Virus record (IMG/VR): IMGVR_UViG_3300020472_001862
Location: 1-64,000 of that record
Strand: one strand, 5' to 3'
Origin: a virus
DNA length: 64,000 nucleotides
Shown: one piece after another, positions 32,939 through 40,286 of the stretch
How positions within the stretch are numbered: position 1 is the first letter of the stretch
Layout: the number at the start of each line of letters is the position of its first letter
Position numbers and translations under genes: made by a program
The notes under the pieces: model-generated
The model's database searches: none
Seen by the model: only the letters and a program-made list of their open reading frames with translations
What the model was told of the DNA's origin: nothing

Positions 32939-33655
32939 ATGAAGTACACAACCAAGACAGCAATTAAATTAGCTATATTGTTTTCAGTAGCAATAGGTGG
33001 GTTAGCATATTGGTTCATACAAGGTGCAACAATATGGCAATTTATTTTTGCCTTTATAATGTTGTCATTAGTTTCTCGAATAGCAAATGCAGGTTATCAT
33101 AGGTGGTTAACACATAATCAATTTCAACCTACATGGTTGGGTAAAAATATAATGTTGTATTTTATGGTTCTTACAGGCGAGGCACCACCTGGACATTATG
33201 TAATAGCACATTTAAATCATCACAAGTATACAGACGAAGAAGGCGATCCTCATGGTCCTAAACAAATAGGATTTTGGAATCTTACATTAGGAAGATATGG
33301 AGAAACAAAACCTGTATTCATGCGAAACTATGCTAGAAATAAAGACGCACAATGGGTAACAGAACATTATTGGAGTTTATATCTTGCTAATTGGATATTA
33401 TTTGCATTAATAAATCCTTATTTAAATGTATGGTTAGCATGTATGTTTTGTTGGAGTTGGCTACAGATGATTAATTTAAATTGGCGAGGACATGGTGGCA
33501 CAAAAGGAACACCTACAAACTTAGGTAGAATATCTAATTTGTTTATGGGCGGAGAAGACTATCACAAAAATCACCATGAGAATCCAGGCAAACTTGTTAT
33601 GGGCAAATGGGACACAACAGGAAAATATTTAGTTCCTTGGTTATTAGCAAAATGA
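32939..33655 (+). CDS. Second membrane fatty acid desaturase
   Basis: Histidine boxes HRWLTH (about residues 54-59), HLNHH (about 90-94) and HKNHH (about 204-208) with four hydrophobic segments define a membrane di-iron acyl desaturase. It differs strongly from the enzyme at 9639, so the two are not recent duplicates, and it may act at a different position or on a different lipid. A TAATAAATA element close to the late octamer lies 5 bases before the ATG, with no ribosome site, suggesting a leaderless late message. The next gene, a 2OG oxygenase, overlaps its stop codon by four bases. Confidence 0.9.
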   Translation: MKYTTKTAIKLAILFSVAIGGLAYWFIQGATIWQFIFAFIMLSLVSRIANAGYHRWLTHNQFQPTWLGKNIMLYFMVLTGEAPPGHYVIAHLNHHKYTDEEGDPHGPKQIGFWNLTLGRYGETKPVFMRNYARNKDAQWVTEHYWSLYLANWILFALINPYLNVWLACMFCWSWLQMINLNWRGHGGTKGTPTNLGRISNLFMGGEDYHKNHHENPGKLVMGKWDTTGKYLVPWLLAK

Positions 33656-34362
33656 AAAATATATTAGGGTTGCCATTATATCATGTAAGTAATGTAGGCA
33701 TGGATCTTATTCCTGACTTACAAGATTCTATAGAAAAACTACAAACAGAAAAACAACATTGGGATAGACAGAAGAGTAAACTTTCTATATACACAGAAGA
33801 GGGTGAGCATAAATTTAAATTAAAAATAGATCCTATGGAAGGCGTAAAGGGCTGGGAAGAATTACGGAAAAGAATAAAGGACCATGTAATGAATTATTAC
33901 TATTTTACACAGCCCATAGATGATGATTTCCAAGAAGGTCCTGATTCCAAATTAAGAGATTCGTTAAAAAACTTTTGGCACAATTATGCTTGGTATACTT
34001 ATTTTGATGAAACAGATTCTTATGGTTGGCATGCACACACGCAATACTATCTAATTGTTACTTATTATGTAAGAGCAGACGAAGAGCATGCTCCCATACA
34101 ATTTAAGTCCCCCGTATCTGACATGTACACATCTTGGACATTAGGAACAAAGAAAGCAGAACTAAAAGAAACAATACAACCTAAGACAGGAGATATAATG
34201 ATATGGCCTGCTTGGTTAGAACATCAAGTTCCTTCAATACAAGAAAAAATACTAGATCATAGCACTATTGAAGAAAACTATAAATATACAAACAAGAGGA
34301 TTAGCATAACAAATTGTTTCGTTAAACCTCATCAACAATTTTTACATACACAAAGGAAGTAA
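33652..34362 (+). CDS. 2OG-Fe(II) oxygenase-like protein, cyanophage type
   Basis: The ATG at 33652 is used because it overlaps the desaturase stop codon (ATGA); the longer frame would run into that gene. The segment YGWHAHTQYYLIVTYYV, then GDIMIWPAWLEHQVPS and a final RISITNCFV are typical of the phage-borne 2OG oxygenases found throughout T4-like cyanophages (two His near H127/H129, distal H191, R216 for 2-oxoglutarate). The substrate in phages is unknown. At 236 residues it is of usual length. It is coupled to a desaturase, another O2-dependent non-haem iron enzyme. Confidence 0.75.
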   Translation: MKNILGLPLYHVSNVGMDLIPDLQDSIEKLQTEKQHWDRQKSKLSIYTEEGEHKFKLKIDPMEGVKGWEELRKRIKDHVMNYYYFTQPIDDDFQEGPDSKLRDSLKNFWHNYAWYTYFDETDSYGWHAHTQYYLIVTYYVRADEEHAPIQFKSPVSDMYTSWTLGTKKAELKETIQPKTGDIMIWPAWLEHQVPSIQEKILDHSTIEENYKYTNKRISITNCFVKPHQQFLHTQRK

Positions 34363-34364
34363 TT

Positions 34365-34808
34365 ATGAACAGGACTAATGTCTATGAACAACTAAAAATA
34401 GACGAGGGAGTAGTATATGAAATTTACAAAGACCACTTGGGCTACCCGACATTTGGAGTCGGACACTTGGTTAAAGCATCCGATCCTGAGCAAGGACAAG
34501 AAGTCGGAACGCCTATTTCAGAAGAGAGAGTTAAAGCTTGTTTCGAGAAAGACTTGGATATCTCAATAGACGAATGTAAGGCACTATTTAAAGATAATTG
34601 GGAAAGTTATCCTGGCGAACTACAAGAGGTTCTTGTTAATATGATGTTTAATTTAGGACGACCTAGACTAGGAAAGTTTAAAAAGTTTATTGGTGCTATC
34701 AACGAAAGTGATTGGGATAAAGCAGCTATTGAAATGATGGACAGTCGTTGGGCTGTACAAGTAGGACCTAGAGCTAATAGACTCCGTGATAGAGTTCAAT
34801 CGCTTTAA
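34365..34808 (+). CDS. e: T4-type lysozyme (endolysin)
   Basis: The active-site residues of T4 lysozyme are all in place: E14 (for T4 E11), D23 (D20) and T29 (T26), within LKIDEGVVYEIYKDHLGYPTFGVGH. The C-terminal helical domain (LVNMMFNLGRPRLGKFKKF ... SRWAVQVGPRANRL) also matches. It hydrolyses peptidoglycan between MurNAc and GlcNAc. No signal peptide is present, so it needs a holin or acts within a virion. In T4 a homologous domain is fused inside gp5; here gp5 lacks it, so this free enzyme may serve lysis or tail entry. Its stop overlaps the convergent tape-measure gene by 4 bases. Confidence 0.9.
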   Translation: MNRTNVYEQLKIDEGVVYEIYKDHLGYPTFGVGHLVKASDPEQGQEVGTPISEERVKACFEKDLDISIDECKALFKDNWESYPGELQEVLVNMMFNLGRPRLGKFKKFIGAINESDWDKAAIEMMDSRWAVQVGPRANRLRDRVQSL

Positions 34809-37800
34809 GTAAATCTTCGGTCCATTGCTCTGTGAATGGTACTATCATTGTTTCTAATTCCTGGGCTACCCATAACACCTATAAGTTTATCATCTGATTT
34901 GCCACTTGCTGGTGCACTAGTAGAGTTATTGTTTACTACAACTGGTTGGGGTTGAGCACTGGCCATATCGGCAGCTTCACCACTTAATCGTCCCATGTTT
35001 TCAACTGCTAATGCTGTTTTGTTACCTTCAGCATTAATACCTGCCTCATTCATTGATGCCTGATCTAATGTTCCTGATTCTAGTTTTTGTACCATCTCAG
35101 CTTTAGCATTTCTTTTCTCTTCTAAAGTATCCTTAACTAGTTGCATATCTTCACCTGTTAAATCATCATCTTTTATGATAGCCTTAAGTTGACTTATAGA
35201 TGCGTCTTTAAGTTTTTCTTTATCTATTGTAGACTCACCAAATAATTTTTCGTCATACAAGCCACTTTCTTTAGCTTGATCCATACCTGCTTCTAAGTCT
35301 GTGGTTGTAGTAGCATCTGTAATTGCATTCTTTATCATTCCAAAAGGACTAGCATCAAATGCTTTACCAAAGAATCCTCTATCGTCTACACCCGCTTCCT
35401 TAATGTTAGCTTGTTCGTCATTAATAACATCATCTAAATTTTCACCCTGTGCAACTCTCTTTTCTATTCTAGCTGCTAGTTCTGGATCTTTTTCTTTAAG
35501 TGCTTCTAATGTTTGAGCGCCTGTCTTACCATATATACCTTTAGAAATAGTATCTGCATCTGCGAGTCCTAATGTTAGTGCTGATAAAGCTCCACCTGCT
35601 GCACTGGCAGCTTTCATACCGCCTGTTGCGTCTTTACCCTCTACACCAAACTCATCTGTTTTTCCAAACTGATTAAATGCTCCATAAGCAGCTGTACCTA
35701 CAGCAGCTATTCCTGCTAGTGGACCGGCAAACCTTGCTGCTCCTTTTAATAGTCCGCCTGCTTTACCTGCCAGCCTACCTAACTTGCCTAACTTACCGCC
35801 TCTCTTTTTACCACCTCTCTTACCGCCTCTTTTACCGCCTTTTTTCTTACCGCGATTCATAATCATATCCATCATGCCACCACCACTATCTTCTCCACCG
35901 CCACCGCCTAGGCCACCGGCTTCAATGTTTTGTAGTGACTCTAACATCTGTTCTAGTGTGTCTAATTGTCTTTCTGCAAATGACTCTGTGTCTTGTCCTG
36001 TTCTTTCATCTTTGCCTTTGATAGCGTCTGCAAGTTCATCAAATTTTTCTTCTAAGTGCGTATCATGTGTAAAGATAGATCCTTCTGTTGTAGCTTCTTT
36101 TGTTAAAGTAGCAATGTCTTCTGCTGTAGCTTCTGTGTTCTCTGCTGTAGCTTCTAGATCAGCTATGTTTTCTTCTGAGGCTTTTCGTACAGATCCGTCT
36201 CGGTTTTCTTCTGGAATATTTTTATCTCTCCATTCATCTTTCTTACTAGGATCAAATATAGGCTGTCCAGTCTTTGAATCAACATTTCCAGGTTGATTTA
36301 ATATGCCAAGACCTGTATCACTACTCATCATTCTAGCTTGAGCTTCACCTTGACTCTCTACTTCTAAATCTCTTTGTGCTGCCTCTTTAAACTGAAGATC
36401 TCCTTGAAGGCTTTCAAAGTTAGAAAGTTTACCTGTGTTAGCATCTCCAAAAATACGAGAACTATCAAATACTTGACTCATGGCATTCTTAGATAAATTC
36501 ATTCTACCTATTGTTTGGTTTAGAGTTCTATTGAATACTCCTCCACCTATTGCTTTTGCTTTGGCAAATCCTGTTTTACCTTCAGCATCTTTGCCTATGT
36601 TACCTTTATCAAATATACCTTTAAAGCCTTTGCTATCCGGTGTACCAAATAATCTATCTTTTGATTCTTGTGCTTGAAGAGGATCTCCCTGATTAACTCC
36701 AAAGAAAGCTTTAGTTATGGATGAAACTTTTCCTTCTTTACCTGCAGATGCTTTGTTAACACCTTCCAAGTTTAACATTTTTGCTAAATCTTCTCCACCT
36801 GTAACTTTAAGTCTTTCTATATTCTTAGTTACCTGGCCTCTTAATTCGTTTTGTTTCTTAGGATCTTTATTTTCTTGCATTGCTCCCAATGCTTTTATGA
36901 CGTCTCCTAAGTCTGCCTTGGCATCCTCATTTGCATCTAATGCCTTTTGTACAGCAGCTGCGTTAGCTCCTATATTTTTATTTAATTCTGCTGCTCCTTG
37001 TGAGCCTTGATTTTGTAATCTGTTTCTTGTTGTTCCTACAACACCCTGAGATATTCTTACATCTTCTGCCAATGCTTTAATAGGATCTGTAACTGCAAAT
37101 TTACCGGTATCTACATTTTGAAATTTAGCAGTACCTGTTGTCTTATAATCGCCTGCTCTTTTATAATTAGTTTGACCTACTCTTATTTGTTCGTCTTCTC
37201 TAAACACAAGATTCTGTGTTCTATCAAACATGTCTTGGTTAGGTGATAATTCCTGTCCAGATATTTTTCTTTTATTTAAACTCTTGCCTGTCGTTTTAAC
37301 ATCGCCGGAAAGAGAGCCTATATCCTTTACTCTACTTTCTCTTTTTAAAGCAGCCTGATCTCTTTCAAATTGTCTGGCATAGTCTTCATCGTCCATGCCA
37401 TAGCCTTTACGCTTTTTCTCTGTATCTAATTTCTCCCCTGTGCCTGCTGCACCTTCACCTTGGCCTACGGTTGTTTGTTCTGCAATCTTTCTATCTTTTG
37501 CAGATATTGTTTTCTTCTTTCTTTCCTTTTTAATCTTCTCATCTCTAGCATCTGCTACCTCGTCTTGACCGGCAAACAAATCTCCTTGTGCGCTTTCTTT
37601 TTTCTTTCGTTTTTCAGTAGACTCTTTTGTATTCTTAGCTGCTTGATCTAGGTCTTTTTCTGCTTGTGTTTTTTGACTATCCGGTTTATTAGGTCCAGGA
37701 CCAGGCTTGCCACCCAATCCAGCTCCGCCAATTCCACCTTGTTTACTAATAAGAGCTAAAGTTTTTTCAATTCTATTCAACCCTTCTAGAGTCATTTTGT

Positions 37801-38131
37801 TTTGTTCTAGAATAATTTCTCTGGCTGCTTTACCGCCCTTATCTCTTTTTAATTGGCTAGCTTTTTCTTCCTTTAGTTCTGCTAGATTCTTATCTGCTGT
37901 TTCTTGCGCCTTCTTATTTGACGCCATTTCTTTTATCTTACCTGCAATATCAACAGCTAACTGTATTTTATTAAGTTTATCGTTACCTTGTGCGATACCC
38001 TTAAGGACCGTGGTTTCTTCTTTTATGGCAGCTTCAAGATTTTTAAGCTCATCTGATGAAGCCATATCTTTACCAGCATCACCAACTGCTTTAACCTCAT
38101 CTATTAAACCTTTTAACTTCTTGTCATCCAT
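34805..38131 (-). CDS. Tail tape-measure-like protein, 1108 aa
   Basis: A very long protein dominated by charged, coiled-coil-like sequence, with Gly/Lys-rich linkers (GGKRGGKRGGKKRGG near 790) and one Gly/Ala-rich hydrophobic segment (AARFAGPLAGIAAVGTAAYGAF, about 815-840), the usual hallmarks of tape-measure proteins. It follows gp26 and a gp51-like gene on the same strand, the position held by the hub and tape-measure genes (T4 gene 29 order). In such proteins the length sets the tail length and the hydrophobic segment is thought to enter the host membrane at injection. The T4 equivalent has 590 residues, so homology is uncertain and the call rests on position and character. Confidence 0.65.
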   Translation of the reverse strand: MDDKKLKGLIDEVKAVGDAGKDMASSDELKNLEAAIKEETTVLKGIAQGNDKLNKIQLAVDIAGKIKEMASNKKAQETADKNLAELKEEKASQLKRDKGGKAAREIILEQNKMTLEGLNRIEKTLALISKQGGIGGAGLGGKPGPGPNKPDSQKTQAEKDLDQAAKNTKESTEKRKKKESAQGDLFAGQDEVADARDEKIKKERKKKTISAKDRKIAEQTTVGQGEGAAGTGEKLDTEKKRKGYGMDDEDYARQFERDQAALKRESRVKDIGSLSGDVKTTGKSLNKRKISGQELSPNQDMFDRTQNLVFREDEQIRVGQTNYKRAGDYKTTGTAKFQNVDTGKFAVTDPIKALAEDVRISQGVVGTTRNRLQNQGSQGAAELNKNIGANAAAVQKALDANEDAKADLGDVIKALGAMQENKDPKKQNELRGQVTKNIERLKVTGGEDLAKMLNLEGVNKASAGKEGKVSSITKAFFGVNQGDPLQAQESKDRLFGTPDSKGFKGIFDKGNIGKDAEGKTGFAKAKAIGGGVFNRTLNQTIGRMNLSKNAMSQVFDSSRIFGDANTGKLSNFESLQGDLQFKEAAQRDLEVESQGEAQARMMSSDTGLGILNQPGNVDSKTGQPIFDPSKKDEWRDKNIPEENRDGSVRKASEENIADLEATAENTEATAEDIATLTKEATTEGSIFTHDTHLEEKFDELADAIKGKDERTGQDTESFAERQLDTLEQMLESLQNIEAGGLGGGGGEDSGGGMMDMIMNRGKKKGGKRGGKRGGKKRGGKLGKLGRLAGKAGGLLKGAARFAGPLAGIAAVGTAAYGAFNQFGKTDEFGVEGKDATGGMKAASAAGGALSALTLGLADADTISKGIYGKTGAQTLEALKEKDPELAARIEKRVAQGENLDDVINDEQANIKEAGVDDRGFFGKAFDASPFGMIKNAITDATTTTDLEAGMDQAKESGLYDEKLFGESTIDKEKLKDASISQLKAIIKDDDLTGEDMQLVKDTLEEKRNAKAEMVQKLESGTLDQASMNEAGINAEGNKTALAVENMGRLSGEAADMASAQPQPVVVNNNSTSAPASGKSDDKLIGVMGSPGIRNNDSTIHRAMDRRFT

Positions 38132-38136
38132 TTATT

Positions 38137-38280
38137 TTACCAACCTTTATTTCTTTGAGCCTTTTCTTTAGCCTTTTCGGCTTTGTTTTTTAAATGTACT
38201 ATAAGCATTCCTACATACACTTCCCTTTCCCAGGGCATCATATTTTCTAATTCTGTTAGACTATAATGATGTTCCTGCAT
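38137..38280 (-). CDS. 51: gp51-like small hub assembly protein; also the distal part of a -1 frameshift product
   Basis: From the ATG at 38280 the frame encodes 47 residues (MQEHHYSLTELENMMPWERE ... KNKGW), resembling the tiny proteins downstream of gene 26 in marine T4-like phages. The same frame is open further upstream to 38337, where it meets a slippery heptamer at the end of gene 26. Ribosomes slipping back one base would add 66 residues to gp26, giving a 294-residue fusion. Whether the free 47-residue form is also made is uncertain, since no strong ribosome site precedes its ATG. By position it acts in baseplate-hub or tail assembly, as T4 gp51 does. Confidence 0.6.
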   Translation of the reverse strand: MQEHHYSLTELENMMPWEREVYVGMLIVHLKNKAEKAKEKAQRNKGW

Positions 38281-38314
38281 TAACAAAAAATTAGTCCTGT
38301 AATAATTATCAAGA

Positions 38315-38343
38315 CTTTCCTGAGAAAGGCTTAGGCGAAAAAA
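38315..38343 (-). other. Programmed -1 ribosomal frameshift site (slippery heptamer plus hairpin)
   Basis: On the minus strand, gene 26 ends CA-T_TTT_TTC-GCC-TAA. T_TTT_TTC (38343-38337) is a canonical X-XXY-YYZ heptamer in frame, two codons before the stop. After an 8-base spacer a hairpin follows: CTTTC-TCAG-GAAAG (38328-38315). The -1 frame then stays open for 66 codons to 38137. Confidence 0.72.
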
Positions 38344-39020
38344 TGTTCGTATCCATTAATGTTAACTGCTTGGTCTTCACCACAATGTGGACACTCATAT
38401 TCAATCAACTTCTGTAATACAGGCATTGATCTAATAAACTCTCTCATTTTTTCAAACACATCAATAGGAAGATCATTAATAAATTCATCAACTTCCTCTC
38501 TTTTAACATCTTCAATAAATTGTTCCTCTTCTTCAGTAACAATAGATTCTATACAATGTATAATAGTATCGATGTCTGTTTGCCCTTCTTCCTGTGTAAC
38601 TTTCACTGCACTCGGAAATTTCATTTTTATCATAAATTCATCATTAACTTTTATTTCTCTATCTGCGACTCCACTAAGATCGCCTACACCCATCTCATTT
38701 AGATCTAAAGTATAGTTTATAGTGCCTTGGCAATTACCACATACAAGATTAAAATCCTGACTCTCACCAACTGAGGCCATTCTTATTTTTACAAACAAGT
38801 CTTGTAATTGAAACATTGGCATATTCTCGACATTTAATTTCTCGAATGTGCAATTGTCTACAACTTGAGCACAAGCCTGTACCATCTCTTTGTAGTCATC
38901 ACCTTCACTCGCTAGCATTAGAATCTTTTCTTCCTTAACTAGAAAGGGTCTGTATTTAACAGTCTCTCCAGATAACGCAAGAGTAGTATCATATACTGGC
39001 GTATCTATTTTAGGTAACAT
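38331..39020 (-). CDS. 26: Baseplate hub protein gp26-like
   Basis: A 229-residue acidic protein with two Cys pairs, CGNCQG at about 134-138 and CPHCGED at about 212-218, that could bind zinc, and a region (EEKILMLASEGDDYKEMV) typical of T4 gp26-type baseplate hub proteins and of their relatives, the tail assembly chaperones. GGAGAAATAAA precedes the ATG. It stands directly upstream of the gp51-like and tape-measure genes, as in T4 (26-51-...-29). Its end carries a slippery sequence, so part of the product is probably extended by frameshifting. Confidence 0.78.
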   Translation of the reverse strand: MLPKIDTPVYDTTLALSGETVKYRPFLVKEEKILMLASEGDDYKEMVQACAQVVDNCTFEKLNVENMPMFQLQDLFVKIRMASVGESQDFNLVCGNCQGTINYTLDLNEMGVGDLSGVADREIKVNDEFMIKMKFPSAVKVTQEEGQTDIDTIIHCIESIVTEEEEQFIEDVKREEVDEFINDLPIDVFEKMREFIRSMPVLQKLIEYECPHCGEDQAVNINGYEHFFA

Positions 39021-39042: not shown

Positions 39043-39675
39043 TTATTTGTCCCATTGGTTTGATATAGAAGATCTATTAGAAGGACTTGTTCCAAAAGAT
39101 TCTATACCATCTCCTTTCTTGGAATCACTAGATTCCCAATACGCTGCTGAGACAATTAGCGTATTTCTAATTGGCGCTACTGTACCACTAGACATAGGTA
39201 CTAAGTTTAAAACCTTTGGCATACATTCATACAAGCGCCATTTCTTTGTAATATTGTCTTGTAAATCTAAAGTAGCAATATCAACAGTACAAGTTACATC
39301 ATCTATATAACCTAGTTCTTGGCTATTAGTATCTGCACAAGCTGATATCCATTCTTCAAAAAATGATCTTAATTCCCAATCATTTGTTGTTAGAAATGTA
39401 AAGTTAATTTCGTTTCCTAAGAATCCTACTTTAGTGTTTCTAAAGAAAGTCCAAGGACCTATGTTAAATTCTTTGTTACTTAATATCATACCTGGGATTT
39501 GTACTTCTTCACAATACAACTGACCTGTTTTAATAGGATCTTTCCTATCACCTTTCCCTACATTTTTGTCTTTTATTTCCCCTAGATTAAAAGTAACCTC
39601 AAACCTATCTGCTCTAGCAAAGGTTCTTTTTTTAATATCTTCTATGTAATTATTAAGTTTATGATTTGCTGGCAT
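39043..39675 (-). CDS. Tail-tube-fold baseplate protein (gp54/gp19 family)
   Basis: The N-terminal FARADRFEVTFNLG, the CEEVQIPGMILS strand and a late NTLIVSAAYWES give the beta-rich layout of contractile-tail tube proteins. T4 has three such folds: gp19 (tube), gp48 and gp54 (tube initiation at the baseplate). Since this gene lies beside gp26 and the divergent gp48 gene rather than with sheath and portal genes, gp54 or a hub-associated tube protein is favoured over the main tube protein. At 210 residues it is shorter than T4 gp54 (320). It overlaps the neighbouring gene by one base. Confidence 0.6.
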   Translation of the reverse strand: MPANHKLNNYIEDIKKRTFARADRFEVTFNLGEIKDKNVGKGDRKDPIKTGQLYCEEVQIPGMILSNKEFNIGPWTFFRNTKVGFLGNEINFTFLTTNDWELRSFFEEWISACADTNSQELGYIDDVTCTVDIATLDLQDNITKKWRLYECMPKVLNLVPMSSGTVAPIRNTLIVSAAYWESSDSKKGDGIESFGTSPSNRSSISNQWDK

Positions 39676-40286
39676 TATACTTTCCCTACATTAATAGACT
39701 GACGTCTTTTTCTTTCTGGTTTTTCCATTGTTGTTCTATATACTGTTCTATCTGATGCACCAACAAAGTTTTGTACAGGTAAAAATATAGCTGCTTTCCA
39801 ATTTTTAGGATGTACTTCTATCATTTTGCCTGTTATGTTAACAGACAAATATTTTTTAACAGAGCCTCTTACTTCTGGAAATCTACTAAAGTTACTTAAA
39901 TAACTCCAATTAGCTTTTAATTCACTTTCATCTGTTAAGTTTCTATTTGAAGGCATTATCTTATCAATAAGATTTGCTCTTAGTGTAGGAGCTAAATAAT
40001 GTAGGTTAATACCACTAAATCCAGATGGCATTGGTTCTGTAATTATAACCAATGGAACAGTATCATAATATGGTAAGTCTGCTTTCCATTTAGGGTCATA
40101 AGAAAACATATACATTTTTCCTACTGCTAAAGTTCTTGCTTCTTTACCTAAATCTGTTTGGCTAGCCTCTTGAAAAGTATTAACTCCTCTAGCATATTCA
40201 CGAACAGCACGAACATACCATTGGACTGACTTGTCTTGGTGTCTATTGCCTGCCGCTTGCTGTATATCTTTGAATGGTGTAGCCAT
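39675..40286 (-). CDS. Virion protein, possibly DNA end protector gp2-like
   Basis: The centre reads KMYMFSYDPKWKADLPYYD...PLVIITEP...GFSGINLHYLAP, a motif I associate with a virion protein common in T4-like marine phages and often labelled gp2 (DNA end protector). In T4, gene 2 neighbours gene 4, and here too the gene lies next to gp4. The name is tentative. A late promoter (40299-40292, minus) ends 6 bases before the ATG and no ribosome site is present, so the message may be leaderless. The last base is shared with the tube-fold gene's start. Confidence 0.5.
   Translation of the reverse strand: MATPFKDIQQAAGNRHQDKSVQWYVRAVREYARGVNTFQEASQTDLGKEARTLAVGKMYMFSYDPKWKADLPYYDTVPLVIITEPMPSGFSGINLHYLAPTLRANLIDKIMPSNRNLTDESELKANWSYLSNFSRFPEVRGSVKKYLSVNITGKMIEVHPKNWKAAIFLPVQNFVGASDRTVYRTTMEKPERKRRQSINVGKV

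What the first reader, a model, noticed from the sequence alone, without database searches (positions are those of the whole stretch)
38137..39020. Programmed -1 frameshift predicted between gene 26 and the gp51-like frame
Gene 26 ends with an in-frame T_TTT_TTC heptamer two codons before TAA, then an 8-base spacer, a CTTTC/GAAAG hairpin and a -1 frame open for 66 codons that includes the gp51-like sequence. The arrangement sits directly upstream of the tape-measure gene, exactly where lambda-like and P2-like phages make their frameshifted tail assembly chaperones. It would give a 294-residue gp26-51 fusion, implying that the T4-type hub proteins gp26/gp51 work as tail chaperones.
Basis: partly seen in the sequence, partly recalled or inferred. 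Interest (0 to 1): 0.78.

Follow-up and report, generated by a model that had tools for sequence, protein, structure and literature searches.

The report
Frameshifted tail chaperone in T4-like phage
A marine T4-like virus very probably makes two versions of one tail-building helper protein by having some ribosomes slip back one letter at the end of a gene; the signal is real and conserved across many relatives, but the underlying idea has already been published.

Summary
On the minus strand, gene 26 (38331-39020) ends CAT TTT TTC GCC TAA. The heptamer T_TTT_TTC (38343-38337) is followed by a -1 frame open for 66 codons, giving a 294-residue fusion. It is the only in-frame T_TTT_TTY among 19,622 codons of ATG-started ORFs of at least 120 aa in this 35% GC window. 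Comparative evidence is strong: all 79 readable IMG/VR homologues and named phages from at least eight lineages keep the heptamer and the -1 frame. The stretch between slip site and first start codon evolves as -1-frame protein (pN/pS 0.14-0.16; other frames at least 1.06), and 49 of 51 non-redundant loci have no -1-frame start upstream. gp26 lies between a tail-tube gene and a long gene in the tape-measure position. T4 gp51 is the in-frame long form (gp26 domain plus extension), encoded separately from gp26. The chaperone reading is therefore well supported, but Vladimirov, Gautam and Davidson (2022) already identified the T4-like tail chaperone genes, and a citing paper credits them with poly-T slip sites. 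This is a new member of a known kind. Frameshifting and chaperone activity were not measured.

The parts
38331..39020 (-). gp26 homologue, 229 aa: predicted short tail assembly chaperone form (TAC-N)
   Evidence: PF12322 E 6e-54; phrog_150 E 1e-55; AlphaFold2 model mean pLDDT 87.5
38337..38343 (-). slippery heptamer T_TTT_TTC
   Evidence: read directly; invariant T_TTT_TTY in 88 gp26 loci; unique in frame in the window
38137..38337 (-). -1 frame extension, 66 codons plus TAA (38139-38137): gp51-like C-terminal part of the long form (TAC-NC)
   Evidence: phrog_634 E 3e-26; conserved in all relatives
38287..38328 (-). 14 -1-frame codons between gp26 stop and first possible start codon (TTG 38286, ATG 38280): conserved as protein although no start codon precedes them
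   Evidence: pN/pS 0.14 in -1 frame, 1.06 and 3.5 in the other frames, 20 sequences of the window's clade
38284..38322 (-). conserved RNA stem-loop CAGGAAAGUCUUG...CAGGACUAAUUUUUUG (arms 38322-38310 and 38299-38284), 14 nt after the heptamer: candidate frameshift stimulator
   Evidence: 97.7% of cells paired, A-U to C-G in 3 sequences; alignment fold energy reached by at most 1 of 300 protein- and pattern-preserving randomisations, z -4.9 to -7.0
   Evidence: no both-sided change, pairing equal to shuffles
34805..38131 (-). 1108-aa gene directly downstream, in the tape-measure position
   Evidence: no family hit for the window protein; the gene at this place in HTVC008M hits tape-measure PHROGs
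39043..39675 (-). tail tube protein gene directly upstream
   Evidence: phrog_45 tail tube E 1e-20
39675..40286 (-). gp2-like DNA end protector, part of the conserved neighbourhood
   Evidence: phrog_429 E 1.5e-46

Best explanation
This is a tail assembly chaperone locus of a T4-type (Kyanoviridae-like) marine phage. Most ribosomes stop at the gp26 TAA and make the short 229-residue form (TAC-N). A minority slip back one base on T_TTT_TTC, the P-site and A-site tRNAs re-pairing TTT TTC to TTT TTT, and read 66 further codons to make the 294-residue long form (TAC-NC). By analogy with lambda gpG/gpGT, the short form would coat the tape measure protein encoded next door, and the extension would recruit the tail tube protein. 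Shown by sequence: the heptamer, the open and protein-conserved -1 frame, and the gene order. Inferred: that slippage happens, its rate, the stimulating role of the downstream stem-loop, and the chaperone activity. In T4 and its close relatives the two products come from separate genes: gp26 without the heptamer, and gp51, an in-frame gp26-domain-plus-extension protein.
For: T_TTT_TTY and the open -1 frame in 79/79 readable IMG/VR homologues and in HTVC008M, S-PM2, Aeromonas AsFcp_2, Vibrio phi-ST2 and D482, Sinorhizobium phiM19, Stenotrophomonas Marzo, Rhizobium LG08 and Pseudomonas pf16, plus nine more cyanophages and DSL-LC02. Third-base invariance with varying amino acid. No upstream -1 start codon in 49/51 non-redundant loci. 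pN/pS 0.14 and 0.16 in the ATG-less segment. Conserved downstream stem in the window's clade. Tail tube - gp26 - extension - large gene order. T4 gp51 matches the gp26 family over its length and the extension family at its C-terminus, while T4 gp26 ends GAG TTC TTT GAG, without the heptamer. T4 gp26 and gp51 are listed as hub assembly chaperones in the T4 tail review (PMC3004832).
Against: No expression, proteomic or reporter data. No significant fold match of the gp26 model to a solved tail chaperone: RBSTP2171 (3FGX), called a tail chaperone in PMC9603447, appears only at E 4.7, though with TM 0.45 on the target over 57 columns. The window's 1108-aa gene has no family hit, so 'tape measure' rests on position. 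The downstream stem is absent from the other large IMG/VR group. Some T4-like lineages have TAATG at the junction, allowing ordinary restart.
Confidence: 0.92

Rival explanations
1. The extension is a separate small protein (gp51, 47-49 residues from ATG 38280 or TTG 38286), made by reinitiation or independent initiation after gp26 stops; the heptamer is incidental. This is how most databases annotate it.
For: S-PM2, S-RSM4, HTVC008M and others are annotated with a separate gp51. Several other lineages have TAATG or TGATG at the gp26 stop, in the extension frame (phi-ST2, D482, Marzo, K469). In the window AGGA lies 8 bases before TTG 38286.
Against: 17-19 codons upstream of the first start codon are conserved as protein in the -1 frame. 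Some loci have no ATG at the usual place (L066 first ATG at extension codon 32). The heptamer's third-base T is invariant where synonymous codons are free to change. T4 gp51 is a covalent fusion of the same two parts.
Confidence: 0.05
2. Both happen: a frameshift fusion and, in some lineages, a free extension made by restart at the overlapping ATG.
For: Heptamer and TAATG/TGATG occur together in phi-ST2, D482 and Marzo.
Against: No overlapping ATG in the window or its clade (listing); no functional data for a free form.
Confidence: 0.15
3. The -1 frame is open by chance in AT-rich DNA and the T-run is ordinary.
For: The window is 35% GC and T-runs are easy to find in such DNA.
Against: Single in-frame occurrence in 19,622 codons; conservation across lineages; pN/pS.
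Confidence: 0.005

Closest known systems
Tail assembly chaperones of T4-like phages (gp26/gp51; Vladimirov, Gautam, Davidson 2022, Virology 566:9-15; paper not held here, known through its title and citing papers PMC10885494 and PMC12846349)
   Same: T4-like tail chaperones with a short form and a longer form that is a fusion of the short form and a downstream part (as PMC10885494 describes that work); the identification with gp26 and gp51 follows from the T4 family matches here (PF12322/phrog_150 and phrog_634); a citing paper credits that work with poly-T slip sequences in T4-like TAC-N genes.
   Different: T4 and close relatives use two separate genes instead of frameshifting; the window phage keeps one gene with a heptamer. 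Whether that paper covers this marine lineage could not be checked.
Lambda gpG/gpGT frameshifted tail assembly chaperones (from general knowledge; Xu, Hendrix, Duda 2004)
   Same: Two overlapping frames upstream of the tape measure gene, -1 slippage near the end of the first, long form = short form plus extension.
   Different: Heptamer T_TTT_TTC rather than G_GGA_AAG; no sequence relation found by the family searches run here; the chaperone domain is larger (about 230 aa) with conserved cysteine pairs.
Pakpunavirus/Vandenendeviridae TAC locus of Pseudomonas phage Adele (PMC12846349)
   Same: Conserved -1 frameshift at a T-run (GTTTTT), uninterrupted -1 frame across the family, annotated elsewhere as a separate hypothetical gene.
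   Different: Different phage family and slip sequence.

Membership tests
-1 programmed ribosomal frameshift site | X_XXY_YYZ heptamer in frame near the end of the upstream gene | tested here: met
   T_TTT_TTC 38343-38337; conserved
-1 programmed ribosomal frameshift site | -1 frame open from the heptamer and conserved as protein before any start codon | tested here: met
-1 programmed ribosomal frameshift site | downstream stimulatory RNA structure | tested here: inconclusive
-1 programmed ribosomal frameshift site | measured fusion product at a set ratio | not testable with these tools
   needs reporter or mass spectrometry
Phage tail assembly chaperone (G/GT type) | short and long forms sharing the N-terminal domain | tested here: met
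   frames shown by sequence; T4 gp51 is the fixed long form
Phage tail assembly chaperone (G/GT type) | located between tail tube and tape measure genes | tested here: met
   tail tube upstream; a large gene downstream in syntenic relatives, tape-measure PHROG hits in HTVC008M and weaker ones in phi-ST2; the window's own tape measure assigned by position only
Phage tail assembly chaperone (G/GT type) | fold related to solved chaperones (HK97 gp13, 3FGX) | tested here: inconclusive
   3FGX found at E 4.7, TM(target) 0.45, rmsd 1.9 over 57 columns; no significant match
Phage tail assembly chaperone (G/GT type) | binds the tape measure protein and is absent from the virion | not testable with these tools
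   PMC3004832 says T4 gp51 is required for assembly but absent from the final particle
T4 gp26 family (PF12322) | profile match above the curated cut-off | tested here: met
   183.5 bits against a cut-off of 24.5

The most novel reading that the evidence does not exclude
The window's clade carries a lineage-specific stem-loop 14-20 nt after a T_TTT_TTC heptamer that sets the short:long chaperone ratio, while other T4-type lineages use different hairpins, weaker N_NTT_TTY sites with or without a restart ATG (Ackermannviridae-like), or gene duplication (T4). One chaperone family would then show several interchangeable ways of making the same two products.
Probability: 0.4. Interest if true: 0.5.

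Novelty: new member of a known kind. Interest (0 to 1): 0.4.

Why it matters
It explains why gp51 of marine T4-like phages is a stump, or not annotated at all: it is the tail end of gp26, reached by frameshifting. It supports a chaperone role for T4's poorly understood hub genes 26 and 51, and suggests that a recoded gene was replaced by two separate genes in the T4 lineage. Hundreds of public records probably need a joined annotation. The general idea is already in print, so the gain is breadth and detail.

Tried and rejected
Sequence search of the PDB with the gp26 profile: no match at E<=1. Foldseek against the PDB: nothing significant. Family search for the window's 1108-aa protein: nothing in Pfam, PHROGs or NCBIfam; blastp of tape-measure candidates linked only HTVC008M and pf16. 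T4 gp28 as a third member of the family: a weak PHROG cross-hit (T4 gp26 to phrog_1140, E 9e-4) was not confirmed by Pfam or hhalign. Downstream RNA structure as a universal feature: not found in the cyanophage-like IMG/VR group. The Vladimirov 2022 paper could not be read.

Full report
What is there. The window is bases 1-64000 of a 170,236-base virus record with T4-type genes in the neighbourhood: head closure (gp4-like), DNA end protector (gp2-like), tail tube, gp26. On the minus strand gp26 (38331-39020) ends GAA CAT TTT TTC GCC TAA. The heptamer T_TTT_TTC is 38343-38337. The -1 frame then reads CGC CTA AGC ... and stays open to the TAA at 38139-38137, 66 residues: RLSLSQESLDNYYRTNFLLMQEHHYSLTELENMMPWEREVYVGMLIVHLKNKAEKAKEKAQRNKGW. 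The next gene (1108 aa) starts a few bases later. The extension is the gp51 family (phrog_634, E 3e-26).

More than chance. In 57 ATG ORFs of at least 120 aa (19,622 codons) T_TTT_TTY occurs in frame once, here, and it is the only one whose -1 frame runs past its own stop. In 80 IMG/VR loci, all 79 in which the gp26 stop could be read have T_TTT_TTY zero or one codon before the stop, and a homologous -1 extension wherever the contig continues. Named phages agree: Kyanoviridae (HTVC008M, S-PM2, nine others, DSL-LC02), Vibrio phi-ST2 and D482, Aeromonas AsFcp_2, Sinorhizobium phiM19, Stenotrophomonas Marzo, Rhizobium LG08, Pseudomonas pf16; Rhizobium RHph_I9 has T_TTT_TTG. In 51 non-redundant loci the codon before TTT encodes H, N, D or S but always ends in T. 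The probabilities quoted from that call ignore relatedness, so they are illustrative.

Why frameshifting and not a separate small gene. Between the slip site and the first possible start codon lie about 17-19 codons, in most loci, that no ordinary initiation can reach: 49 of 51 loci have no -1-frame ATG/GTG/TTG upstream of the slip site before a stop, and several have a stop directly before it. Fourteen of these codons, all beyond the gp26 stop (38328-38287 in the window), evolve as protein in the -1 frame: pN/pS 0.14 in the window's clade (20 sequences) and 0.16 in the cyanophage-like group (21 sequences), against 1.06-3.5 in the other frames. The gp51 ATG itself is not universal. In some named phages (S-PM2, S-SSM7, S-CAM7, S-RIM44, phiM19) an ATG does occur within the first ten extension codons or so (one search gives the offset in bases), so for those the argument leans on the heptamer and on homology.

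RNA structure. RNAalifold instead proposes CAGGARAGUCUUG...CARGACU-AAU-UUYUUG: 97.7% of cells pair against at most 53.5% when slid, and an A-U to C-G change on both sides occurs in three sequences. A null that keeps every protein sequence and the pattern of changes between sequences gave energies as low in 0 of 300 trials (one of 300 for the longest segment), z -4.9 to -7.0. The window sequence alone folds unremarkably (z about -1). The stem is missing from the cyanophage-like IMG/VR group, while S-PM2 has its own strong hairpin (z -3.8). So a stimulator is plausible here but lineage-specific; its 14-nt distance from the heptamer is long for a classical stimulator (general knowledge).

What it does. 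T4 gp51 matches PF12322 over its first 201 residues and the extension family at its C-terminus, while T4 gp26 matches only the first part. T4 gp26 and gp51 are adjacent divergent genes, and T4 gp26 ends GAG TTC TTT GAG TTA CTA TAA without the heptamer. Full-length gp51 relatives are found in over 1,300 phage records, mostly T4 and its relatives in enterobacteria and Acinetobacter. So T4 holds the two products of the frameshifting gene as two genes. Both T4 proteins are listed as hub assembly chaperones in PMC3004832, which also states that gp51 is needed for assembly but absent from the particle. The position between tail tube and a large gene is that of tail assembly chaperones; the HTVC008M downstream protein hits several tape-measure PHROGs, that of phi-ST2 one more weakly, and the window's none. 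The gp26 model (pLDDT 87.5) has no significant PDB match. The tail chaperone 3FGX is in the list at E 4.7, which is at most a lead.

What is already known. [quoted passage not shown] PRFect (PMC10885494) and the phage Adele paper (PMC12846349) describe that work, the latter crediting it with poly-T slip sequences in T4-like TAC-N genes. The paper itself is not held, so its coverage of cyanophages and this marine group is unverified. I therefore call this a new member of a known kind.

Edges of the pattern. In Ackermannviridae-type relatives and some others the extension is still in the -1 frame but the junction is N_NTT_TTY: 2050H1 GTT TTC, CBA120 ATT TTC, SUMAE CTT TTC, K469 CTT TTT, Cygsa01 ATT TTC. 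2050H1's G_GTT_TTC equals, from memory, the T7 gene 10 slip site. K469 and Cygsa01 also have TAATG at the stop. These lineages may slip less, or restart.

Noticed in passing
Ackermannviridae-like and other junctions: L088:4729-4744, L091:4651-4666, L105:3211-3226, L108:2163-2178, L109:2241-2256: gp26 homologues keep the -1-frame extension but replace T_TTT_TTY by N_NTT_TTY (ATT TTC, GTT TTC, CTT TTC, CTT TTT), some with a TAATG restart.
   Followed up: partly
L083:5000-5070 (S-PM2): A 14-bp hairpin starts about 9 nt after the heptamer, z about -3.8, different from the stem in the window's clade.
   Followed up: partly
L085, L087, L092 gp26 stop codons: Heptamer and overlapping start (TAATG or TGATG) occur together, so fusion and free extension could both be made.
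   Followed up: no
Public records, e.g. L084 (AsFcp_2) and L098 (ACG-2014j): The extension is not annotated at all, or begins at an internal ATG, in many cyanophage and Aeromonas phage records.
   Followed up: partly
window 34365-34808 (+): Phage lysozyme-like gene (PF00959, E 1e-10) convergent with and overlapping the tape-measure-position gene by 4 bases.
   Followed up: partly
window 33607-34362 (+): 2OG-Fe(II) oxygenase-like gene (PF13759, E 2e-10).
   Followed up: partly
L081:5806-6429 (T4 gp26): Weak PHROG cross-hit to the gp28 hub family (phrog_1140, E 9e-4); not confirmed by Pfam or hhalign.
   Followed up: yes
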